DNA of 51,264 nucleotides, taken from the NCBI GenBank assembly GCA_015057715.1, contig SVDS01000018.1, positions 1 through 51,264 on the forward strand. Direction: 5' to 3'. Source of the stretch: Paenibacillaceae bacterium. GTDB taxonomy: Bacteria > Bacillota > Clostridia > Lachnospirales > Lachnospiraceae. Below, piece after piece: positions 13,423-39,006 of the stretch. Position 1 is the first letter of the stretch. Each line of letters begins with the position of its first letter. The notes under the pieces were generated by a model that saw nothing but the letters and a program-made list of their open reading frames with translations, made no database searches and was not told where the DNA came from. A program made the position numbers and the translations under genes.

Positions 13423-14421
13423 TTAACCAATCTTGTGTTTAATGGCTACGATACGAATCTGTTTAGGCTCATAAACGCGCTCATAGTTAATCGCATTCAT
13501 CAGTTCATCTTTCGTGGGTGTCTCAACATGTTCTCGTGCAAGGTTGGTCCACTTGATACCCCTGGGGTGCATGATAAAAGCTTTACGGCTGATAAGATAA
13601 TCAACACCGGACCCCTTTCTTTTTTCTCGATCAACCTCCGTCGGTACGAATCCAACTGGTGAACCGTTTCCGAATGCAATAGCGCCTTGCCCGAATAAAT
13701 ATGTAGTAAATACGTCACCGATTACTGGGCAGCCATCATCTACAATAACCCTGCGTCCCTGATATACCTCGAATTCCACATCGTTTGAGTCTCTTTCAGT
13801 AGAAATAAGGTTGAGCTTTTTAAGATATGTCTTAGTGGCACTGTGCATGCTAACAGCAGTAAGCTGACCCTGTGCATCTCCCAATAACTGTACAGCGTCA
13901 ATAAATGCACTGGCGCTGATTTTCTGAGCTGCAGCTGACCCCATAGAAGCAATGTCAAGAATGTGATCTTTAAGAGGAGTCGCAGTCTCGCTCTCCCCAT
14001 TGGTATAACTTCCGAAAGCACCGGATAAGACCTGGATCAAGATCTTCTGGTATTCTCTAACCCAATATCCAGCCTCCAGATTTCCGATAGCTGCCATAGG
14101 GTCGCTACCAGCAAGTGCCGCTGAAAGATCCGTTGCTGCCCACAGGTTGGCCTTGCGGATAGTTGTAGACACGTCCTGATTGGAAGTGATTTTTTTTGCT
14201 GTCAGATCTTTGTCTTCAATAATATCTTCAGAGTCACCGGTTAAATCCTCGAAGAATGGCATATTGTGGATTGGAGCTGCTTCACTCGCCAAACGGTCAA
14301 ACTCTGCATTGTTGGTAATTATACCGCTCTGGAAGAGGGCGGATTGCTCCATGGTACGATTTACTACATACGGTGTGTAAAGTTCCGGAATAATAACATC
14401 TGATAATTTTGTTGCTGGCAT
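13423..14421 (-). CDS. Major capsid protein
   Basis: 332 aa. The N-terminus contains TKLSDVIIPELYTPYVVNRTMEQSALFQSGI, with DVSTTIRKANLWAATDLSAALAGSDPM in the centre, typical of the PBSX/SPP1-like coat protein group. It follows the scaffold gene and precedes the connectors. It forms the icosahedral head shell. Confidence 0.9.
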   Translation of the reverse strand: MPATKLSDVIIPELYTPYVVNRTMEQSALFQSGIITNNAEFDRLASEAAPIHNMPFFEDLTGDSEDIIEDKDLTAKKITSNQDVSTTIRKANLWAATDLSAALAGSDPMAAIGNLEAGYWVREYQKILIQVLSGAFGSYTNGESETATPLKDHILDIASMGSAAAQKISASAFIDAVQLLGDAQGQLTAVSMHSATKTYLKKLNLISTERDSNDVEFEVYQGRRVIVDDGCPVIGDVFTTYLFGQGAIAFGNGSPVGFVPTEVDREKRKGSGVDYLISRKAFIMHPRGIKWTNLAREHVETPTKDELMNAINYERVYEPKQIRIVAIKHKIG

Positions 14422-14447: not shown

Positions 14448-15050
14448 TTAAATAGTTACGCCGGCGGATGCAGCCAGCTCTCTTGCCCTTGTTGGGTCGT
14501 CGCGAAGTAGCTTTCCCTGCTCCGTAAGATTAAAACTTTCTTTTGCAAATGGATTCTTTGCTGACGGATTTCCACCACCTGCTGGTTTATAGCCACCACC
14601 ATTGTCGACCTTAAATAAATGCGGAGAAGCTTCTTTCAGCGGTTTCAGTATATCGTCAACACCGACTGGCTTCCCCTCTTTATCGAAAGTAAACTTATCA
14701 AGCCCGCCCTGCTTATAAATGATATAATCTACATCTGTAACACCGGCCTCTTTAAGCTTGTCTTTCAGAGCATATTCCTTCTGAGTATTTGCGGCAGCGT
14801 CTTTCAGACCTTTAATCTCATTCTCATAGTCCGTAATCTTCTTCTGGAGACCTTCGCTTCCTTCGGAGTCCTTTTTCAAGTCACCAATGGTCGTATTGGC
14901 CGTTTCAAGCTCCTTGACCTTGTTGTTATACTCCTGCTTCGGTACTGCATGCTTCGGAAACTCTGTGTTGACAGCTTTCATCGTAGCTTCAATGTCCAAC
15001 TTCCCATCTGTAATTACTGCATTTTCTAAAATTGTTTTTATCCAATCCAT
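14448..15050 (-). CDS. Capsid scaffold protein (GPO-like/DUF4355-type)
   Basis: About 200 aa, highly charged with a long coiled coil (about residues 50-105, KELETANTTIGDLKKDSEGSEGLQKKI). The C-terminus ends NPFAKESFNLTEQGKLLRDDPTRARELA, common in phage minor structural/scaffold proteins. The ATG at 15050 follows GGAGG by 8 bases; the ATG at 15065 contains that Shine-Dalgarno and is less likely. A structured leader lies directly upstream. Confidence 0.83.
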   Translation of the reverse strand: MDWIKTILENAVITDGKLDIEATMKAVNTEFPKHAVPKQEYNNKVKELETANTTIGDLKKDSEGSEGLQKKITDYENEIKGLKDAAANTQKEYALKDKLKEAGVTDVDYIIYKQGGLDKFTFDKEGKPVGVDDILKPLKEASPHLFKVDNGGGYKPAGGGNPSAKNPFAKESFNLTEQGKLLRDDPTRARELAASAGVTI

Positions 15051-15079
15051 TGTTATTTCCTCCATAGATTTTTATTCCC

Positions 15080-15308: not shown

Positions 15309-15527
15309 CTAAATAATTAACATAGTTTTTATTTTTTCTGCTTCTTCCTCTGTTATTTCATCGTATTCCCAATCCTCACCGATAAATATGCAGCATTGCT
15401 CTGGAGAAGGTTTCCATTCTTCTAATTCCTTGTTGTAGCGCTCAAACTCTCCGCCGATGAAACGATACAAGCGTCTTGCGCTTTTCTTGTTCTTTTCATA
15501 GCCATATACAAAATAAAAATCCTCCAT
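15309..15527 (-). CDS. Small acidic protein (72 aa), candidate immunity partner of MuF-RelA/SpoT
   Basis: Unrecognised. It is strongly acidic (about 18 Asp/Glu against 11 Lys/Arg) and has no membrane segment. The ATG has GGAGG 4 bases upstream and lies 8 bases after the MuF stop. In phages with toxin-tailed MuF proteins a small gene directly downstream is often the immunity gene. Acidic size and position fit, but the role is inference. A terminator follows it. Confidence 0.7.
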   Translation of the reverse strand: MEDFYFVYGYEKNKKSARRLYRFIGGEFERYNKELEEWKPSPEQCCIFIGEDWEYDEITEEEAEKIKTMLII

Positions 15528-15535
15528 GAGACCTC

Positions 15536-17284
15536 CTATTTTATCTGATCAATATTTAAAGGTATCTCTAATTGAGATGATAGTTCAAACATTTTATTAG
15601 TAAGGACATTACGTCTTTCGGCACTTGTAGCATCTTTACGATGCTCTTCGTATAAACCATGCATTTCTTTACTGTCTTTTAGTTTATAACTTTCAGGTGT
15701 GTGGAATTGCACCTCAAACCGCTGCCCTTCCGGTGTCTCAAAAACGCAATTCACGCCTTTATATGCAGACCTTTTATTAAGCCAAGTGTTTTTGACTTTT
15801 ACAGTCTTATACCCCATGTCGGTAAAATGCTTTGATACATTATTATACGAATCTACCACAGACAGGGCATTGCTCTGATAAGTGTATCGAATAACATCGT
15901 TCGTTGAATTAATGGTATCTTTAATAATCTGTGAATCCAAGCTATGCTCACTGTCAGTACCTACTTTTCGCAGGAAAGAATCTTTTGATTTTATCCGGTT
16001 TTCCAACCCTACTAATGTCACTCCGGTGTCATTAGATATCTTTTTCAGATCAGCAGTGATTGCCGGTTCTTTCAGAATGATCTTATTGTAAGCATTAGTC
16101 TTGCGGTAAAGCGCCTGTACGCTCTTCCACTCTTCATTATCATTATACTTTAATTTTTGGAAAGAATCCAGTGTTTCAGGAGCGTCTTCTCCAAGAATAT
16201 CTTTATACCGCTCAAACTGCTCCCGGTCTGCTTTTTCATGTTGGAGTTTCTTTTCAGCCAGTGCCTTTTTAGGATTATTTTCTATGTACTCAGCGTGCCA
16301 CTCTTTATAAGACATTTCAGCTGGAACTTTGTAAGATTCTCCCGTTTCAGGATCCCTGGCAACTCTTGTCATGCCATCTGTCGGAGTATCATCATAATAT
16401 GGCGCATCTGTGCAACGGCATAGAGCATGCATAGGGGCCATATTGACACCGACTACCGCCTTATCAACAACAAACTTCTTTGTATCCAGCGGTCTGCACA
16501 CCTCACATGTCTTACTGTCCAGAGTGGCAATATATTCATACTTCTCTACTCCGTCCTCTTTGTAGGCATCATGTGTAGCCTGAGACATCATAAAACTAGC
16601 CTCGGTATGCAAGAGCCGATATGCCTCCCATTGTTTGGTCTGGAATTTCTTTGCAAATTCCTTGCTTAATGTATTGGGGTGCTTTCCCTGTATCATCATG
16701 GTTGTCATGGACTCCATGAGCTGTTGCTGCAGGTATGCCTTTTGCTTCCAGAGCCGTGTGGAGAAATTAGCTCCATCAAACGGATAATTGATGTAAGTAT
16801 CAATCAACGCCGGGGATACTTGAGCGAAATCTTTATGAAACCCGGTGTATTGGTCGATATTGTACCATGTCCGATAGTAAGAATCTTTATACACCTGTTC
16901 CAATGTTAGGGATCCGTTATATTCATAATCAACCGCATACAGTTGCTGCAGGACAGCGTCGATCTGTTTTTCTAATGCTTCGTACCGGGTAACCCTCGCC
17001 TTGATAGACATGTTTTCCACTTCAAGGTTATACTTTCCCATGTTAGCCTTTACCTTGTCGATAAAGTCATTAAGTTCCCCGACCTCAGCCTTTGACAGCA
17101 GTTTCCGGGCTTTGGCATAAGTCACACCGTTTTCATCTGCATACCGCAGGTAAAACAAATCTATGGTCTGCTGTATTTCCTTTTTGGATTGAATAAACGC
17201 TTTTTCTAAGTCAACATAATATTGATTAGCAAGCTTTTCCCCGGCCATGTACCGACTTGTTTGCCTATCTTCCCAGTAAGACAT
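15536..17284 (-). CDS. MuF minor capsid protein with C-terminal RelA/SpoT-like domain
   Basis: 582 aa. Residues about 1-335 are a standard MuF/SPP1 gp7 head morphogenesis protein; the metal-binding signature is C260-x2-C263 with H286, C289 and C291. Residues about 400-582 are an extra domain carrying RelA/SpoT synthetase motifs: R430-x-K432-x3-S436-x3-K440, NDVIRY (D463, R466), YKG (508-510), FEVQFHT (E524, Q526) and MHGLY (H542). This fits a (p)ppGpp/(p)ppApp-type or tRNA-pyrophosphorylating toxin domain delivered with the virion. The start overlaps the portal stop (TGATG). The MuF part is certain; enzymatic activity of the tail is inferred. Confidence 0.9.
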   Translation of the reverse strand: MSYWEDRQTSRYMAGEKLANQYYVDLEKAFIQSKKEIQQTIDLFYLRYADENGVTYAKARKLLSKAEVGELNDFIDKVKANMGKYNLEVENMSIKARVTRYEALEKQIDAVLQQLYAVDYEYNGSLTLEQVYKDSYYRTWYNIDQYTGFHKDFAQVSPALIDTYINYPFDGANFSTRLWKQKAYLQQQLMESMTTMMIQGKHPNTLSKEFAKKFQTKQWEAYRLLHTEASFMMSQATHDAYKEDGVEKYEYIATLDSKTCEVCRPLDTKKFVVDKAVVGVNMAPMHALCRCTDAPYYDDTPTDGMTRVARDPETGESYKVPAEMSYKEWHAEYIENNPKKALAEKKLQHEKADREQFERYKDILGEDAPETLDSFQKLKYNDNEEWKSVQALYRKTNAYNKIILKEPAITADLKKISNDTGVTLVGLENRIKSKDSFLRKVGTDSEHSLDSQIIKDTINSTNDVIRYTYQSNALSVVDSYNNVSKHFTDMGYKTVKVKNTWLNKRSAYKGVNCVFETPEGQRFEVQFHTPESYKLKDSKEMHGLYEEHRKDATSAERRNVLTNKMFELSSQLEIPLNIDQIK

Positions 17285-18705
17285 CAGTCTTCATCTCCCT
17301 CACCCTCTTCGTTCTCTAACCCAGGGGCACCATTCTTAGCCAGCATATCAGTGACAGTCTGTTCCCGCTTCTCCTGCTCACCATCTTCTTCCTTTATGGC
17401 TTCCATCTCTGCTTCCGAATCTTCCACCCAGGGGTGATGCGCTACAATTGTTGCCCGCGAAATAACTCCCATACTCTTTTCCGCGATATCTGCAAGTTCT
17501 GTGTCATTCTTAACGCTGGTTCTGGTCCATGTCTGAATGATCGTATCGTCCTTGATAGGGATCTTCAGAAGCCGGCACACACAGCGGACGAACATTCCAA
17601 ACCCCAGCTTAAACTCCGTTTCCTGAAGACCCGCTTTCAACTCTAGGAGAGAATAAAGAAAATTCAATGCTACACCGGAGCTGTTTCCAAAATTTTGAGG
17701 ATCCGGATCTATTCCCTGCCCCTGCTCAAAGATACATTTCCGAGTTGTGGTAAGCAGTTTTTCCCTGGCTTCAACCGGTAACTCGATTGTAAGAGTTGAA
17801 ACCCCCGATTTGTCATCCGATCCGCCGCTTTCAACCTGGATTGCTTTGTAATTTTTAAGATCACTCAGAAACTCCCCAAGATCTGCCCCTCCATAATTGG
17901 TTAGCACAAAAATAACTTCCTGGATATCCTCCAGGTCATTAACAAAACCACTGAATACCTTGCAATAGGAGTCAATCAGCGGTTTTATATTTACCAGATC
18001 ATCGGTGTCTATATTGTTGTTGAAAAACGGGAAGAACGGAATTTCGCCCATGCCATGCTTATATGTTTCCGTTGCATCTCCTGTCTGCGGATCTGCGATA
18101 AACATCTGGTATGGTGACAGAAGATTGATATCATCACATGTTCTATGTCGGTATGTATTACACTCTGTATCATTCCAGTATTCATACACGATGTACGTAT
18201 CTCCGGAATCCTCGTCTATCACTTGGTAGTTCCTTAAAACCCCCTCAAGTTCTTTTTCCAGGCTTTTGTTCCATATCGGTATAATTTGTTCTGCTGGGAC
18301 AACCGCATACTTAAAGCCGCTCTTGCTGTCCTTCCATAAGTGCAACCACCCCACGGTACAGTTAGAGGCCTCAATGCAGAGATCTTTACACACCTTTGCG
18401 TACTTATCGCCCAAGAACTTTGTCAATTGTTTATTAGCATCCTTATCTCCCAAATCAAAAAGAGGGGGCGCGGCAAACATGTAGGAGGCTTTCTGATTGA
18501 CTAAAAGCCCGTGGAAGTTAAAAGGTATCCGATTGTCCGCATTCCTTAACGGACGTTCTCCCTGCTCCTCTTTTTTCTTAGGCTCTGCAATCAGTATGTC
18601 AGTCTTGTTTCTGTAGTAATTCCTTGCTTTTTCTGCCCTTGTTATAAAGCCCGAATGTCCGGGCTGATGTCTCTTTATCAGCTTTTTAATTATCTCTATA
18701 TCCAC
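17284..18705 (-). CDS. Portal protein (SPP1 gp6-like)
   Basis: About 473 aa. Family patterns are visible: RADxP-like PFNFHGLLVNQKASYMF near the N-terminus and GEIPFFPFFNN plus ENDLEDIQEVIFVLTNYGG-type segments in the core. The acidic, Glu-rich C-terminus is also usual. The portal is the dodecameric DNA gate of the head. A GTG at 18705 with AGGTG 6 bases upstream is taken as start; an earlier GTG at 18714 is possible. Confidence 0.92.
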   Translation of the reverse strand: MDIEIIKKLIKRHQPGHSGFITRAEKARNYYRNKTDILIAEPKKKEEQGERPLRNADNRIPFNFHGLLVNQKASYMFAAPPLFDLGDKDANKQLTKFLGDKYAKVCKDLCIEASNCTVGWLHLWKDSKSGFKYAVVPAEQIIPIWNKSLEKELEGVLRNYQVIDEDSGDTYIVYEYWNDTECNTYRHRTCDDINLLSPYQMFIADPQTGDATETYKHGMGEIPFFPFFNNNIDTDDLVNIKPLIDSYCKVFSGFVNDLEDIQEVIFVLTNYGGADLGEFLSDLKNYKAIQVESGGSDDKSGVSTLTIELPVEAREKLLTTTRKCIFEQGQGIDPDPQNFGNSSGVALNFLYSLLELKAGLQETEFKLGFGMFVRCVCRLLKIPIKDDTIIQTWTRTSVKNDTELADIAEKSMGVISRATIVAHHPWVEDSEAEMEAIKEEDGEQEKREQTVTDMLAKNGAPGLENEEGEGDED

Positions 18706-18715
18706 GCGTCTCACC

Positions 18716-20116
18716 TCACTTTAATACTTTCAGACCGCCTCCCTTTGCGCAATTCTCGGCAATGCCAGTAGTTGCGTCGGGGGCATCATCATGCTTATTT
18801 TTACCTTCTCGCTGATATTTGTTCATCGCATCGTGATACTCTGGCCATCTATTCCGCCAATCCTCCGGATAATAGATGTGCTGCATCACCCACGAAGAAT
18901 TGGAATAAATCCGCGCGTCTTTATTGCTCGACTGTGTGAACCATTTGATCGTGGTGAAATTGCTTCCATGCTCCTGCTCCAATATTCTTTTGACATTCCT
19001 TGCAAATCCGCGACCACCGTTGTTAGATTCAATCCTTGCAACGTTCACCTGGCCGTTATAAAGCATTTTTGCGGTCTCCGGTTCCGTATCTTCCATGGGA
19101 GCTTTAGTATACAGTACATCAAGTATGTAAGCCTCATTGGCAAACGTAACACCATAATTTATACTGCAAAGATAATCGTCGCCGGTATCTGCTGTATCTG
19201 TGTAATTCCTGATTTCCTTAAACTGCGGAAGCGCTCCACTATACGTCTTGAACGCAGTATATAGCTTTCCTTTAAGGTCAATCGGCTCCTGTTGATAGTT
19301 GGCAGAAGCAACATCTGCACCCATGGCTTTTATCTTACCCTGATAGGATTTGTAGGATAATACCTCCGGGCAAAGCATTTCATGGGTTTCTGGGTTTATC
19401 AATGCTTTCATGCATATGTGACGGATCTTTGCGCCAGCTTCTTTAAAGTGCTGCAATGCGCGTCCTGCAAGATCATCACTCGCCCACCGGGTCATGATGA
19501 TAATAATCTTGCCACATTCTTCCAGACGAGAGAGCATGGTATCCGTAAACCATGACCAGTGCTTTTCTTTTATTAGTTCGTTGTTGGCTTCCTCTGCATT
19601 TTTGATAAGATCATCAATGATGAGTAGGGAAGCACCGAAGCCGGTTGCTGTACCGGTTGGCGATGTGGCCAGGTAATTGTTATACCCACCTTCCAGACTC
19701 CAGAGGTTCATTGCTCCATCGCCTTGCTTTATTTGTACCCCTGGGAACACATCGGAAAATACTACTTTGTTCTGATCGGCTTTAACCTCCTGGATATCGT
19801 TACGGACGTTTTTCGAGAACATAGTGGAAAGGGTCTCATTGTAGGATCCGGTCATGATCTTCTGTGACTGATCTTTTCCCAGTACCCACTCTACCAAAAG
19901 GCCCGCAGTACGACTTTTGCCGTGGCGAGGAGGCTCGTTCACGATCAAGACTTCATCATCTGACTCTATAAAGTCCTGAAAGCCATTACAAAGATCCAGA
20001 AGATATCGGCGGTCTTCCTTGTAAAAATCCGGTGCTTTTAGATTGCAATAAAAAAAGAACTCCCTTCTGGCAAGTTCTATCTTTGCACCTCTAATAATAT
20101 TTTCCTTATCCACCAT
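18716..20116 (-). CDS. terL: Terminase large subunit
   Basis: 466 aa packaging motor. The ATPase has a Walker A-like PPRHGKSRT (about residues 62-70) and Walker B SLLIIDDL (about 163-170). The C-terminal half contains the nuclease segment with acidic residues (YTDTADTGDDYL, KHDDAPDA). The C-terminal DAPDATTGIAE motif is common to this group. It overlaps the small subunit gene by 11 bases. Confidence 0.95.
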   Translation of the reverse strand: MVDKENIIRGAKIELARREFFFYCNLKAPDFYKEDRRYLLDLCNGFQDFIESDDEVLIVNEPPRHGKSRTAGLLVEWVLGKDQSQKIMTGSYNETLSTMFSKNVRNDIQEVKADQNKVVFSDVFPGVQIKQGDGAMNLWSLEGGYNNYLATSPTGTATGFGASLLIIDDLIKNAEEANNELIKEKHWSWFTDTMLSRLEECGKIIIIMTRWASDDLAGRALQHFKEAGAKIRHICMKALINPETHEMLCPEVLSYKSYQGKIKAMGADVASANYQQEPIDLKGKLYTAFKTYSGALPQFKEIRNYTDTADTGDDYLCSINYGVTFANEAYILDVLYTKAPMEDTEPETAKMLYNGQVNVARIESNNGGRGFARNVKRILEQEHGSNFTTIKWFTQSSNKDARIYSNSSWVMQHIYYPEDWRNRWPEYHDAMNKYQREGKNKHDDAPDATTGIAENCAKGGGLKVLK

Positions 20117-20705: not shown

Positions 20706-21635
20706 TTATAATATTTCTCTTTTATAAATATTTTGCTTAGCCATTGCTGATTCCAGATCATATTCTTTTTGTCGAAATCTATTACTAAACTCTAAATATT
20801 TCTCTTTTAAATCCATGAATCTATTGCGAATTATTGAACCACGTCTTTTACTATAGAAATCTAATAATTCCATAAGGTCATTTAATATAACTAATTCCTT
20901 AGGGCTCATTTTATTATCTATAATCATAGTTAAATGCACATCAGCAAACCTGACTAATTCCATAAACAAATCATTTGATATATTGTCATTGTTCCTGTTC
21001 TTATCCAAATCCCTACTTTCATTGAGTATACTCAATAAATATCCCGGAGATAAAATTTGATCAGGAGAAGATAATAAAACATTTTGCTTTCTTAACAATT
21101 GCAAAATTTCTTCAATCGGATCTTCTTTTAGAATTTCTTTGCCACTTTTTATTGGCTTGTAACTAGTTACTATGTTGTTCATAGAATGATACATTTTATC
21201 CCATATAGCTTCAAAAGCCGTCTCAATTACTTCTTTTGAAAGAGGACAATCCGTTGCTTTATTTATTGAATCTAATAACTGGTAAAAATCATCTTTTTCA
21301 AATTTCGTTGCTTGATATCTTTTTAAAGGTCCCTGTATATCTGACGTTTTTATATTTAGCATCAATGCAGACACTCTAGAATCTAAAGATTTAGCTATGG
21401 CACCGGCTTCAAAATGTATCCATGGAGCATTTGTATTTTCAGATGTCAAACATATTATGCCATAGCTACATTCAGATAATTCAGCGGATATTTTACTATC
21501 CCAATTCTCTCCTTTTTCAATATCTTCAGCAGAATAAAACACCTCTACTGATTGAATAATACAAGGTATCCATTTTTTTAATTCTTGTGCTATTTTCTTA
21601 CTCAACTCTCCTGACCAACTTACAAAAATTTTCAT
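20706..21635 (-). CDS. TIR-domain protein (candidate phage defence NADase)
   Basis: 309 aa. Residues 1-130 are a bacterial TIR domain: MKIFVSWSGE (beta-A), SAEDIEKGENWDSKI, YGIICLTSENTNAPWIHFEAGA with E76 as the expected catalytic glutamate. A helical C-terminal region (about 170-309) has no recognised domain. TIR proteins typically cleave NAD+ or make cyclic ADP-ribose signals. The gene has its own consensus promoter and terminator. The ATG at 21635 (GGGGG upstream) is chosen because the promoter places the 5' end near 21679, cutting off the GGAGG of an in-frame ATG at 21671. AT-rich relative to neighbours, so likely a moron. Confidence 0.87.
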   Translation of the reverse strand: MKIFVSWSGELSKKIAQELKKWIPCIIQSVEVFYSAEDIEKGENWDSKISAELSECSYGIICLTSENTNAPWIHFEAGAIAKSLDSRVSALMLNIKTSDIQGPLKRYQATKFEKDDFYQLLDSINKATDCPLSKEVIETAFEAIWDKMYHSMNNIVTSYKPIKSGKEILKEDPIEEILQLLRKQNVLLSSPDQILSPGYLLSILNESRDLDKNRNNDNISNDLFMELVRFADVHLTMIIDNKMSPKELVILNDLMELLDFYSKRRGSIIRNRFMDLKEKYLEFSNRFRQKEYDLESAMAKQNIYKREIL

Positions 21636-21685
21636 TTTATCCCCCTTGTAAAAATTATCATAGCATTTCATGCATTAGCACCTCC

Positions 21686-25852: not shown

Positions 25853-26926
25853 TTACGGCAGATAATCGTAAATTGACATCTGTACTGCCGGATAATCTTC
25901 CCAGGCTACCCCGATATAATCAAGGACCCTTCCCCAGCCATACTTTTCACCGGTTATCTCATCAACACAGCACTCATACATCCAGAAATGCCATGCTTTT
26001 TGATTATCTTCCCTCAGCCTATCAAATCGGTGCGGTCTTTTTTCTAGATGAATTCCAAACCCGCATATATCACAACCTGTCCTCTGGGCTTTTGTAGTAT
26101 ATAAAGTTCCATCTGATTTTCTTCGAATCTCACCATAAGCTCCGGGGACTGGGACTTTTAGATCAAGTGCCAACTGCAAAATATCCTGACGCATAAATGG
26201 AGCAAATGGCGCCGACCGTGTAACCTCTTTCCCGTAATAATTGCAGCCATTTTTCATAAGCGAAAATTCTCTTTGTCCACCTTCAGAAGCCATCAAACCA
26301 AGAAATGGAAAGCTGTTATGCTCTTTTGCCCATCGGTCGCATGGATCTTCTTTCATGTGCTTACAGCAATCTGCAGATACTCTGAAATTAGCGCATTTGC
26401 AGCATAGATCCGGTCGATGTTCCTGATAATTTCCTCCAAACAACTTAATCCACTTATCCGGAAGCTTGATTTTCTTTGAGTGTTGCCATTTGCCTTGTTC
26501 TCCCATATCCCCTGTCATGATTGCATGAATAAAGGTCTGTTTCTCGCTATCCTTAATCTGCAACAAGTTAATTTTGTGAGCCTTAGCTTTGCTGATAACT
26601 GGGAAACCAAGCTCTTGCAGCACCTTGTGTTTTGCCATATCCGGATAGATCGGTCTTACTCCTATCTGCTTATGTATCTTTCTGATGCTGGAATGCTCCA
26701 CCGCAGTAACTCCAATTGCAGGAACATCTAAGCCAATTGAATCAAGAAAGTATTTAAGAGTAATACTGTCCAGACCGCCTACTGAGACATGTACATTCAA
26801 ACCACGCTCATTTACAATCTCATCATAGAATTCCTTGGCCCTTTGTTCCGCCCGTCTGACTTTCACCTCATAAGGCAATCGCTGCATTGCAACAAATTTT
26901 TTAATATAATCTTTCTGTTCTGACAT
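25853..26926 (-). CDS. PAPS-reductase/ATP-pyrophosphatase family protein
   Basis: 357 aa with the PP-loop SVGGLDS (about residues 48-54) that binds ATP or PAPS. A cysteine-rich region follows: LCCKCANFRVSADCCKHMKEDPC and, later, TGCDICGFGIH, suggesting an iron-sulfur or zinc site. Such proteins are frequent in phage early operons; some relate to DndC/sulfur metabolism and some are thought to modify nucleic acid. No dnd partners are present, so the reaction here is unknown. Located between Lit-like and RusA genes. Confidence 0.85.
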   Translation of the reverse strand: MSEQKDYIKKFVAMQRLPYEVKVRRAEQRAKEFYDEIVNERGLNVHVSVGGLDSITLKYFLDSIGLDVPAIGVTAVEHSSIRKIHKQIGVRPIYPDMAKHKVLQELGFPVISKAKAHKINLLQIKDSEKQTFIHAIMTGDMGEQGKWQHSKKIKLPDKWIKLFGGNYQEHRPDLCCKCANFRVSADCCKHMKEDPCDRWAKEHNSFPFLGLMASEGGQREFSLMKNGCNYYGKEVTRSAPFAPFMRQDILQLALDLKVPVPGAYGEIRRKSDGTLYTTKAQRTGCDICGFGIHLEKRPHRFDRLREDNQKAWHFWMYECCVDEITGEKYGWGRVLDYIGVAWEDYPAVQMSIYDYLP

Positions 26927-35845: not shown

Positions 35846-35929
35846 TTAATTGTCGATCAAATTTAACAAAAAATTTCCAGATATTTTTATCGCTATAGTT
35901 ATGCGATTTTTTCAGAACCCTATAATCAC

Positions 35930-35957
35930 ATTATACGCGATAATTTCAGAATGTCAA
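35930..35957 (-). promoter_or_regulatory. Leftward early (lytic) promoter
   Basis: Minus strand TTGACA (35957-35952), 16-base spacer, TATAAT (35935-35930). The operator at 35937-35949 occupies the spacer, so a bound repressor would block it. Confidence 0.82.
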
Positions 35958-36000
35958 GGATGTTTTTGCGATTTTTTCAGGATTATTAAGGAGCGCAAAA

Positions 36001-36383
36001 TGGATCTTAAAGAGCGTATCAAAGAGTTGTGTAAGAAAAACAATATTTCAATGAATCAATTAGAGCAAGAACTTGATTTTGGTAAAGGATATATTAGTAA
36101 GCTAGGGAAAAGTACACCCAATGCTACGAAAATTCAACAACTGGCTAATCGGCTAGGAGTTACGGTAGATTACCTCATGACCGGCAATTCCGATGATGAT
36201 AACGATCATTATTATACTAATGAGGAAACTCGGGAAATAGCTCAGGAGATTTTTGAAAATCCAGATCTGAAATCATTGTTTCATGCCGCAAGAGACTTGC
36301 CACCAGAAAGGTTAAAGGCACATTTAACTTTTATACAGTCCCTAAAAGAGCAAGAAGACAAGCATAATGACGAAGGGTGTTGA
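36001..36383 (+). CDS. CI-like repressor, XRE family
   Basis: 127 aa. The HTH is in the N-terminal 60 residues (NNISMNQLEQELDFGKGYISKLGKS, RLGVTVDYLMTG). The C-terminal region (about 75-127) is helical and has no peptidase dyad, so this is not a LexA-type self-cleaving repressor. The ATG at 36001 has AAGGAG 7 bases upstream; the open frame extends upstream to 35850 through the operators but lacks a credible start there. Confidence 0.88.
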
Positions 36384-36677: not shown

Positions 36678-37745
36678 ATGGATTTCATTGATGAATTGAA
36701 ACTATTTTCTGAACGAGTAAAGCAACGTAAAGAGCAAATACCAACTGAGGAGGCTACCAAAATGTCATTGATAGTCCCGTTCTTCCAATTGTTGGGATAT
36801 GATGTGTTTAATCCTGACGAATTCATGCCAGAGTATGTGGCTGATGTTGGTATTAAAAAAGGTGAAAAGGTCGATTATGCAATTCTATTCGAAGGAAAAC
36901 CATTAATACTCATTGAGTGTAAATGGTGCGGTTCTAATCTTGACCAGCATAGTTCCCAACTTTTTAGATACTTCGGAACAAGTACTGCAAAATTCGGTAT
37001 CCTCACAAATGGCATTGTCTACAGATTCTATACCGATTTGGATGAATCAAATAAAATGGATCTTACTCCATTTTTAGAGATTAATATGCTGGATATTAAA
37101 GAGAGTTATGTAAATGAATTAAAAAAGTTCTCTAAACAAAATTTTGATGTGGATAATATCTTTAATACAGCGTCAGAACTGAAATATTCAAAATTAATAA
37201 AAGAATATGTAAAAATGCAATTAGATAATCCTGATGATAATTTTGTAAAGTTTATTCTTACAAGCGTATACGAAGGTGTAAAAACACAAAATGTTATTGA
37301 TAAGTTTAAACCAATAGTAAAAAAATCCTTTAATGGTTTTATTAATGAAACCATGAACGATAAAATTTCAAGCGCACTTAAAAGTAACGATGAAGTAGCA
37401 GTCACTGAGCAACTGGACTCAGAAATATCAGAACATACCGACACGAATCAAAGTGGGGTTATAACAACAGAGGAAGAGATACAATCGTTTTATATCATTA
37501 AAGGAATGTTAGCTGAATTTGCAATACCATCTGATATTACATATCGTGATACTGAAAGTTATTTTGGAATACTTTATAAAGATAATAATCGCAAACCGAT
37601 CTGCAGGATAAATCTTGACAAAAAGAAGAGACAAATTTTGATCCCAGATGAGCACAAAAATTTTACACGACATTATATCGATACAATGGATGATATCTAT
37701 AATTATAAGCAAGAATTAATTGACTGTCTTAATAGATATCTATAA
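36678..37745 (+). CDS. Type I restriction HsdR N-terminal-domain protein
   Basis: 355 aa. The N-terminal about 140 residues carry a PD-(D/E)xK nuclease core: D66 in KVDYAILFEGK, then E80-C-K82. This matches the HSDR_N domain without the helicase motor. The C-terminal region (about 260-355) is a separate alpha/beta domain. GGGGGAGG precedes the ATG. Present in the lysogeny-expressed region between repressor and integrase, so a defence or superinfection role is plausible. Confidence 0.83.
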   Translation: MDFIDELKLFSERVKQRKEQIPTEEATKMSLIVPFFQLLGYDVFNPDEFMPEYVADVGIKKGEKVDYAILFEGKPLILIECKWCGSNLDQHSSQLFRYFGTSTAKFGILTNGIVYRFYTDLDESNKMDLTPFLEINMLDIKESYVNELKKFSKQNFDVDNIFNTASELKYSKLIKEYVKMQLDNPDDNFVKFILTSVYEGVKTQNVIDKFKPIVKKSFNGFINETMNDKISSALKSNDEVAVTEQLDSEISEHTDTNQSGVITTEEEIQSFYIIKGMLAEFAIPSDITYRDTESYFGILYKDNNRKPICRINLDKKKRQILIPDEHKNFTRHYIDTMDDIYNYKQELIDCLNRYL

Positions 37746-37920: not shown

Positions 37921-39006
37921 ATGGCAACAGCAAAGAAACTGCCCTCCGGGTCCTGGAGGGTTCAGATCTACAGTCATACCGAATCAACTTTACTGCCAGA
38001 CGGATCTTCCAAAAACAAAAGAATATATAAATCTTTTACCAGCGATGATCCTTCTCCGAAGGGAAAAAGGCAGATTGAAAAAGAAGCTGCTCTATGGGCC
38101 GCAAATAAGGAACTGGATTCAAAGAGTTATAACAAGACTATTGGGGATATGATAAATGACTACTGTGCTGCAAAAAGTAACGTACTCTCTCCCACCACAA
38201 TAAATGGATATAAGTCTATTAAAGAAAATATGATGAAGAGCATATCTGAACTAAAGGCTGATCGTGTAGGGAACGATATAATCCAACAATGGATTAATGA
38301 AATCTCAATAGACAAATCTCCCAAAACCGTTAGAAATGCTCACGGACTTCTGGTAGCTGCATATGATCTTTACTATCCTGAAAGACGTATTCGGATAAAG
38401 CTACCGCAAAAAATAAAAAAGACTACTTATACCCCTTCTGACGAAGATATAAAAATTCTCATGGATCATTTTAAATGTGATAACGAAATGTTGAAAGCCG
38501 TCTGTCTGGCAGCATTTGGTACTCTTCGCCGATCAGAAATCTGCGCCTTGACAGCAGATGATGTACATGGCTGTACTATTGCAGTAAACAAGGCGATGGT
38601 CAGAGTTTCAAGAGGTGAATGGACAATAAAAACTACGAAAACAGTATCCAGTACAAGAGAGATAATAATGCCTCAGTTTGTAATTGATATGCTGCCAAAA
38701 TCAGGGAAGTTAGTAGAAGTCGGAGCTCCCGATAATATATCAAATCGATTTGCAAGAGCTATCAAAAAGCTAAAACTTGGGGAGATTCGCTTTCATGACT
38801 TAAGACATTACGCCGCTTCCATCATGCACGCGCTGAATGTACCAGATCAATATATTATGCAGCGTGGGGGATGGTCTTCAGATAAAACCTTAAAGCAGGT
38901 CTATCGTGGTACGATTAATGATTATGAGCAGAAATATGTAGATGTCACTATTAAACATTTTGAATCGATGCAACACGAAATGCAACACAAAAATAAAAAA
39001 GCCTAG
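37921..39006 (+). CDS. int: Tyrosine recombinase (phage integrase)
   Basis: 361 aa. An N-terminal arm-binding region (AKKLPSGSWRVQIYSHTE), a core-binding domain (about 72-170) and the catalytic domain. Active-site residues are R203 (TLRRSEI), H292 and R295 (HDLRH), W318 (GGW, replacing His as is common) and Y328. It catalyses integration and excision at the adjacent tRNA-Ala gene. ATG with AAAGGAAAT upstream. Confidence 0.95.
   Translation: MATAKKLPSGSWRVQIYSHTESTLLPDGSSKNKRIYKSFTSDDPSPKGKRQIEKEAALWAANKELDSKSYNKTIGDMINDYCAAKSNVLSPTTINGYKSIKENMMKSISELKADRVGNDIIQQWINEISIDKSPKTVRNAHGLLVAAYDLYYPERRIRIKLPQKIKKTTYTPSDEDIKILMDHFKCDNEMLKAVCLAAFGTLRRSEICALTADDVHGCTIAVNKAMVRVSRGEWTIKTTKTVSSTREIIMPQFVIDMLPKSGKLVEVGAPDNISNRFARAIKKLKLGEIRFHDLRHYAASIMHALNVPDQYIMQRGGWSSDKTLKQVYRGTINDYEQKYVDVTIKHFESMQHEMQHKNKKA

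What the first reader, a model, noticed from the sequence alone, without database searches (positions are those of the whole stretch)
15309..17284. MuF capsid protein fused to a RelA/SpoT-like synthetase domain, with a small acidic gene directly downstream
Residues about 400-582 of the MuF protein carry a RelA/SpoT motif set in the right order and spacing: R430-x-K432-x3-S436-x3-K440, NDVIRY, YKG, FEVQFHT and MHGLY. MuF proteins enter or line the phage head, and polymorphic toxin tails on MuF proteins are known in temperate phages of Firmicutes. A nucleotide-second-messenger or tRNA-modifying toxin in the virion could slow the host after injection or kill rival cells. The 72-aa gene (about 18 acidic against 11 basic residues) sits 8 bases after the MuF stop and is a natural immunity candidate.
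Basis: partly seen in the sequence, partly recalled or inferred. Interest (0 to 1): 0.82.

Follow-up and report, generated by a model that had tools for sequence, protein, structure and literature searches.

The report
Phage-head alarmone toxin with immunity gene
A prophage, probably of a clostridial bacterium, fuses a minor head protein to an enzyme domain that likely makes a growth-stopping alarmone nucleotide, with a small candidate immunity gene directly behind it; this is a new member of a toxin family that is already in print.

Summary
On the minus strand, 15536-17284 encodes a 582-aa MuF minor head protein whose last ~183 residues are a RelA/SpoT-type synthetase domain with the active-site positions kept; it matches solved SaEAS (8vx3) at E 3.5e-17, by profile 8.7e-33. 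A 72-aa gene starts 8 bases after the stop. The kind is known: "Apk2" toxins (MuF plus (p)ppApp synthetase) with IapK immunity (PMC3482391, PMC12226406). The domain is 42/38/38% identical to Streptococcus, Mannheimia and Pasteurella phage relatives. The tail is modular: of 45 loci with a related MuF N-terminus, 6 show it, 7 are cut off, 32 show none; closely similar tail-immunity pairs sit on PF06152-type head proteins. A profile grown from the 72-aa protein matches 121 of 127 small genes behind such tails (partly circular) and 0 of 27 behind MuF genes without them. Differences from tested members: no Aph1 hydrolase gene (0 of 27 determinable rows of its clade) and Phe for Tyr in motif syn4, so the product, (p)ppApp or (p)ppGpp, is open. 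Toxicity and virion delivery are untested.

The parts
15536..17284 (-). MuF minor head protein with C-terminal RelA/SpoT-type synthetase domain (582 aa), Apk2-like
16409..16720 (-). Phage_Mu_F domain, residues 189-292
   Evidence: Pfam PF04233 59.4 bits, cut-off 29.6
15539..16087 (-). Synthetase (SYNTH/Apk2tox-like) domain, residues 400-582; D463, R466, K496, N512, E524, Q526 fall on the SaEAS active-site residues named in PMC12691689
15309..15527 (-). 72-aa IapK-type immunity candidate, 8 bases after the MuF stop
17284..18714 (-). portal protein, upstream neighbour in the head module (context)
   Evidence: phrog_64, E 9.2e-122
18716..20116 (-). terminase large subunit (context)
   Evidence: phrog_30251, E 3.8e-219
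14448..15065 (-). head scaffolding protein, next phage gene after the 72-aa ORF (context)
   Evidence: phrog_194, E 1.6e-43; no Aph1 match in 885 six-frame segments of the window
13423..14421 (-). major head protein (context)
   Evidence: phrog_247, E 6.1e-108

Best explanation
A MuF polymorphic toxin of a temperate phage whose genes include a tail sheath. The MuF part places the protein in the phage head (inferred from family knowledge). The C-terminal domain moves pyrophosphate from ATP to the 3'-OH of a nucleotide, most likely an adenine nucleotide, making (p)ppApp and draining ATP (inferred from 38-42% identity to phage relatives of tested Apk2 domains and from a complete active site). The 72-aa protein is the cognate IapK-type inhibitor that shields the producing cell (inferred from its co-occurrence with the tail). 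When and into whom the toxin is delivered is unknown, for this protein and for the family. Shown here: domain identity, intact motifs, modular tail, tail-tracking partner gene, purifying selection.
For: Domain homology to SaEAS and Tas1. 42 of 50,697 phage records match, all over at least 80% of the domain and at under 60% identity: 33 Streptococcus, 3 Pasteurella, 2 Mannheimia, 2 Haemophilus, 2 Aggregatibacter phages; the first three are genera in which Apk2 was tested (PMC12226406). D463, R466, Y508, N512, E524, Q526 and H528 are the same in 164 of 164 aligned domains, near-copies included. Confident model: pLDDT 95.0, pTM 0.88. Tail exchange in both directions. IapK-type profile: 121 of 127 small ORFs directly behind Rel tails (partly circular), 0 of 27 small ORFs behind MuF genes without a Rel tail. 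dN/dS 0.06, 0.06 and 0.07 in the domain against L008, L009 and L010. Toxicity, product and IapK of tested relatives: PMC12226406, whole text.
Against: Nothing biochemical was done on this protein. No Aph1 gene stands beside it, although the tested apk2 loci have one. Syn4 reads QFH where five named phage relatives read QYH; [quoted passage not shown] The 72-aa protein is only 18-32% identical to five genes at the iapK position, gave BLASTP E 0.011 with the one compared directly, and its family matches no solved immunity protein by sequence.
Confidence: 0.8

Rival explanations
1. Same toxin-immunity architecture, but the product is (p)ppGpp or a mixture, so that the host's own Rel hydrolase can clear it and no Aph1 gene is needed. 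(Overlaps with the best explanation; only the product differs.)
For: Syn4 QFH as in SaEAS, which makes both. In the window's 29-row clade 27 rows have Phe there, and 0 of 27 determinable rows have Aph1. The genome carries a long RSH protein of 776 aa with HD and synthetase matches. A T7SS-linked relative is (p)ppGpp-specific (PMC12691689, passages).
Against: Over the whole tree Phe and absence of Aph1 are not linked: 13 of 66 Phe rows and 15 of 62 Tyr rows have Aph1, and independent pairs give no support. The tested MuF proteins make only (p)ppApp (PMC12226406).
Confidence: 0.2
2. A tRNA-modifying toxSAS that pyrophosphorylates the 3' CCA end of tRNA.
For: Such enzymes share the SYNTH fold and some are phage-borne (PMC12691689, PMC11782079, passages).
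Against: The profile of 86 rows finds only SaEAS and Tas1 among solved chains at E up to 1; I did not check separately which tRNA-modifying structures are in that copy. By PMC11782079 Tis1-type partners go with nucleotide-acceptor toxSAS, and IapK is described as blocking the acceptor site (PMC12226406); kinship of the 72-aa family with Tis1 itself was not seen.
Confidence: 0.04
3. A structural extension of the head protein that has lost catalysis.
For: It is part of a head protein, and some MuF relatives have tails of unknown role.
Against: 32 of 45 related MuF loci show no such tail, seven of them complete at 337-343 aa; the active site is intact and under purifying selection; a partner gene travels with it.
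Confidence: 0.03

Closest known systems
Apk2 MuF toxins of S. pneumoniae, M. haemolytica and P. multocida prophages
   Same: MuF N-terminus; SYNTH tail 42/38/38% identical to phage relatives L003, L005, L007; portal, MuF, small ORF in that order; small ORF of 69-73 aa directly downstream
   Different: No aph1 gene next door; syn4 QFH, not QYH; immunity candidate strongly diverged, 23/32/23%
SaEAS (PDB 8vx3), secreted alarmone synthetase of Streptomyces
   Same: Best-matching solved chain; same D, R, K, N, E, Q positions and the same QFH motif
   Different: Sec-exported, no phage head part, no adjacent immunity gene (PMC12691689, passages)
Tas1/Apk1, T6SS toxin
   Same: Same synthetase family; profile E 7.6e-06
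   Different: PAAR carrier for T6SS, partner Tis1 (papers); distant in sequence
C-terminal region of XopAD/skwp type III effectors
   Same: NCBIfam XopAD profile matches residues 403-581 at E 3.1e-26
   Different: A plant-directed T3SS effector (PMC3482391, passages); 91 bits against a whole-protein cut-off of 2000; no such gene was fetched

Membership tests
Apk2 (MuF + (p)ppApp synthetase) | N-terminal MuF domain | tested here: met
   PF04233 59.4 bits over 29.6; TIGR01641 88.8 over 39.65
Apk2 (MuF + (p)ppApp synthetase) | C-terminal SYNTH domain homologous to Apk2tox with intact syn motifs | tested here: met
   42/38/38% to L003/L005/L007, which are 46-47% identical to each other; syn2 RYT and syn3 GxN kept; syn4 is FH instead of YH
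Apk2 (MuF + (p)ppApp synthetase) | Makes (p)ppApp | not testable with these tools
   needs HPLC; syn4 Phe leaves it open
Apk2 (MuF + (p)ppApp synthetase) | Toxic to bacteria | not testable with these tools
   needs expression
Apk2 (MuF + (p)ppApp synthetase) | Followed by iapK-type immunity gene | tested here: met
   profile grown from the 72-aa protein reaches the genes at the iapK position of L003-L007 and 0 of 27 control ORFs; direct identity only 18-32%
Apk2 (MuF + (p)ppApp synthetase) | Followed by aph1 hydrolase gene (present in the tested loci, not part of the name's definition) | tested here: not met
   no match in 885 six-frame segments of the window
MuF polymorphic toxins | Conserved MuF carrier with exchangeable C-terminal tails | tested here: met
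   tail-less, Ntox50, other and Rel ends on related N-termini
MuF polymorphic toxins | Encoded in the head module of temperate phages | tested here: met
   portal, terminase, scaffold and major head protein beside it; integrase 37921-39006 and HTH protein 35850-36383
tRNA-modifying toxSAS (FaRel2/CapRel type) | Sequence kinship with those enzymes | tested here: inconclusive
Pfam RelA_SpoT, PF04607 | Curated model reached | tested here: not met
   kinship is shown by 8vx3 instead

The most novel reading that the evidence does not exclude
The window belongs to a clostridial/Paenibacillus branch of phage-head alarmone synthetases that relies on the binding inhibitor alone. Its product is (p)ppGpp or a mixture that the host's own Rel hydrolase can clear, which would explain why no member with readable flanks carries Aph1; and the toxin-immunity cassette hops as a unit between two classes of minor head protein (PF04233 and PF06152).
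Probability: 0.18. Interest if true: 0.5.

Novelty: new member of a known kind. Interest (0 to 1): 0.32.

Why it matters
The role of MuF toxins is open; PMC12226406 says that it remains to be established. This locus adds a probable clostridial prophage with tail-sheath genes, shows a toxin-immunity pair on two classes of head protein, and shows that many relatives lack the enzymatic second immunity (28 of 128 determinable rows have it). That makes one question testable: does the product change where Aph1 is missing?

Tried and rejected
A link between syn4 Phe and absence of Aph1 looked promising inside the window's clade, but over the whole tree independent pairs give no support (5 pairs on starred branches, median p 1). 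Dropped as evidence.

Solved structures searched with the immunity family (66 rows): best E 0.15, a WD-40 protein, nothing usable and no Tis1 match. Pfam, NCBIfam, PHROGs and PADLOC give nothing firm for the 72-aa protein: phrog_3514 at E 0.0073, unknown function, and PADLOC JAB at 0.051. tblastn of the 72-aa protein in 50,697 phage records: no match at E up to 10. Direct BLASTP with one gene at the iapK position gave E 0.011; the link rests on the iterated profile, which had not fully converged after six rounds.

Rows left out: the tree used 143 of 164 domains; identical, short and right-open rows and nine loci that I took for copies were dropped. The label PF06152-type in the tree comes from a profile that I built from six rows; of these, L009 alone was checked with Pfam. 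Collection searches kept the best 80 of 301 and the best 80 of 142 relatives. Downstream genes were sought on the match strand only.

Full report
What is there. The finding's 15309-17284 holds two minus-strand genes. The first, 15536-17284, encodes 582 aa with a Phage_Mu_F domain at residues 189-292 and an SPP1 gp7 match. It follows portal and terminase genes and precedes scaffold and major head protein genes. The second, 15309-15527, encodes 72 aa and starts 8 bases after the first gene's stop. A tail sheath protein (phrog_279), an integrase and an HTH protein point to a temperate phage with a contractile tail.

The tail is an alarmone synthetase domain. Residues 400-582 match one solved protein well, 8vx3 (named SaSAS in the PDB listing, SaEAS in PMC12691689), at E 3.5e-17. 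A profile of 86 rows, the window first, matches it at 8.7e-33 and Tas1 at 7.6e-06. PMC12691689 (passages read) names the SaEAS residues D121, R124, K154, N169, E182 and Q184. By the alignment (my count) these fall on D463, R466, K496, N512, E524 and Q526 of the window; the crystallised protein carries Ala at 121. In 164 aligned domains D463, R466, Y508, N512, E524, Q526 and H528 do not vary, while K496 is Lys in only 67 of 164. The 164 include near-copies. The predicted structure is confident: pLDDT 95.0, pTM 0.88.

It is a known kind. Zhang et al. 2012 (PMC3482391, passages) described RelA/SpoT domains fused to MuF in S. pneumoniae and M. haemolytica prophages and proposed conflict between bacteria. 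Jamet et al. 2017 (PMC5576092, passages) named MuF toxins and listed RelA-like tails. Paulet et al. 2025 (PMC12226406, whole text) compared Apk2tox domains from three prophages: all toxic in E. coli, one of them weakly; (p)ppApp only for the two that could be purified; neutralised by the cognate IapK and, mostly in part, by Aph1. A Bacteroides caccae Apk2 is mentioned there and in PMC11699363 (passages). Two primary papers cited there (J Mol Biol 2023, PNAS 2023) I did not read; a look-up of the PNAS one failed. In the phage collection 42 of 50,697 records match, all over at least 80% of the domain at under 60% identity. I looked at five of them. L003, L004, L005 and L007 have MuF, a 68-73 aa ORF and a gene of the HD hydrolase family in that order (L005's is annotated as hypothetical, and I put it with the others from its place and sequence). 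L006 (Aaphi23) has the small ORF but no Aph1 match. The window is 42, 38 and 38% identical to L003, L005 and L007, which are 46-47% identical to each other. These are phage relatives from the same host species, not the tested strains themselves.

Tails swap. A search with the MuF N-terminus gave 45 loci, near-copies included. Of these, 6 show a Rel tail (L052, L090, L091, L097, L100, L103), 7 are cut by the contig end before a tail could show (L092, L121, L126, L127, L130, L131, L133), and 32 show none (one of them, L128, has a broken frame). The closest complete ones without the Rel tail are L093 (81% over 385 residues) and the tail-less L094 and L095 (83 and 80%, 339 aa each). L098 has Ntox50 (78.6 bits over 22.2). 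In the other direction, L009, whose domain is 92% identical and whose 72-aa partner is 83% identical (contig also held as L139), has a Phage_min_cap2 (PF06152) N-terminus. PMC5576092 counts PF06152 as class MuF2 of one superfamily, so the exchange is between two classes of MuF carrier. On a quick tree of 143 domains (36 of 140 inner branches at SH-aLRT 95 or more) the window and L008 sit inside a group of PF06152-type rows, with 99 for the four-row set. The two labels need 9 changes, at least 4 of them forced by the well-supported branches, against 18.7 in shuffles. So the toxin-immunity pair was probably moved as a cassette.

The 72-aa gene. Of 148 Rel genes with at least 900 bases downstream, 118 have a 50-110 aa ORF directly behind by mechanical calling: the window, 5 of 5 named phages, 65 of 69 viral contigs and 47 of 73 genome loci. 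Starting from the window's 72-aa protein alone, iterated profiles took in 32, 62, 116, 117, 119 and 121 of 127 such ORFs. That figure is partly circular, because the profile grew on them. The controls did not enter the profile: 0 of 27 small ORFs behind 33 MuF genes without a Rel tail (near-copies included), and 26 of 1783 other small ORFs, all 26 in Rel loci. The family includes the genes at the iapK position of L003-L007, so I call it IapK-type. Direct similarity is weak: 18-32%, BLASTP E 0.011 with the one compared. Its predicted structure is a small beta-alpha protein, pLDDT 87.1, pTM 0.71. How it inhibits is inferred from IapK, which is described as blocking the acceptor site.

Selection. 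Against L008, L009 and L010 dN/dS in the domain is 0.06, 0.06 and 0.07. For the 72-aa gene it is 0.20 with L008, 0.04 with L011 and 0.10 with L012; dS is saturated with L009, L010 and L023. Both genes look maintained.

What differs. No Aph1 gene: no match in the six frames of the window, and the scaffold gene is the next phage gene. In the window's 29-row clade 0 of 27 determinable rows have Aph1; over all, 28 of 128 do. My profile could miss very divergent hydrolases or distant genes. The host genome has other candidates: a 776-aa ORF with HD and synthetase matches, and a 128-aa ORF 40% identical to a phage Aph1 over 87 residues. Syn4 reads QFH as in SaEAS, against QYH in L003-L007. SaEAS makes both (p)ppApp and (p)ppGpp, so the product here is open. 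Over the whole tree the Phe/Tyr state is not linked to Aph1.

Verdict. A well-supported new member of the MuF alarmone-synthetase toxins, with (p)ppApp the most likely product (my estimate about 0.7) and an IapK-type partner. The best explanation and the first rival overlap, since they differ in product only. My paper searches listed no report of a clostridial MuF-Rel locus without Aph1, but most subscription papers are not held, I read few of the listed ones, and PMC12226406 says that Bacillota members were among 89 Apk2 homologues already counted.

Noticed in passing
L227:6656-7438 (-), window's own genome, contig C278 (also L002): Stand-alone 260-aa Rel-domain protein without MuF, 35% identical to the window domain, between a GtrA-like and a DinB-like gene (my reading, no family search). 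Its last ~45 residues match the IapK-type profile (E 3.4e-12): toxin and part of an immunity protein in one frame. L173 and L177 have the same 260-aa form at the same place; L167 and L187 there have a 219-aa protein plus a separate 69-aa IapK-type ORF (as L153 and L161 do elsewhere); L165, L166 and L178 end at 217 aa without one. dN/dS 0.10-0.24 against eight relatives. Perhaps a phage toxin tail kept by Lacrimispora-type chromosomes.
   Followed up: partly
20706-21671 (-): TIR-domain gene (TIR_2, 34.0 bits over 28) just upstream of the small terminase gene; best PADLOC match TIR-TM, E 4.6e-72. A possible anti-phage defence gene carried by the prophage.
   Followed up: partly
36678-37745 (+): Gene with a type I restriction HSDR_N-like domain (60.7 bits over 25.1) just before the integrase; no PADLOC match. 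Possibly defence cargo.
   Followed up: partly
25853-26926 (-): PAPS-reductase-like protein (phrog_424, E 4.6e-19) among phage genes; no Pfam or PADLOC match at E 0.01.
   Followed up: partly
L204, L208, L212, L214, L217 (actinobacterial records): Large proteins (912-2495 aa) that carry the same Rel-type domain internally and no MuF match; perhaps other toxin carriers.
   Followed up: no
window's own genome, contig C37 near 26869: 128-aa ORF 40% identical over 87 residues to a phage Aph1: a possible stand-alone small alarmone hydrolase.
   Followed up: no
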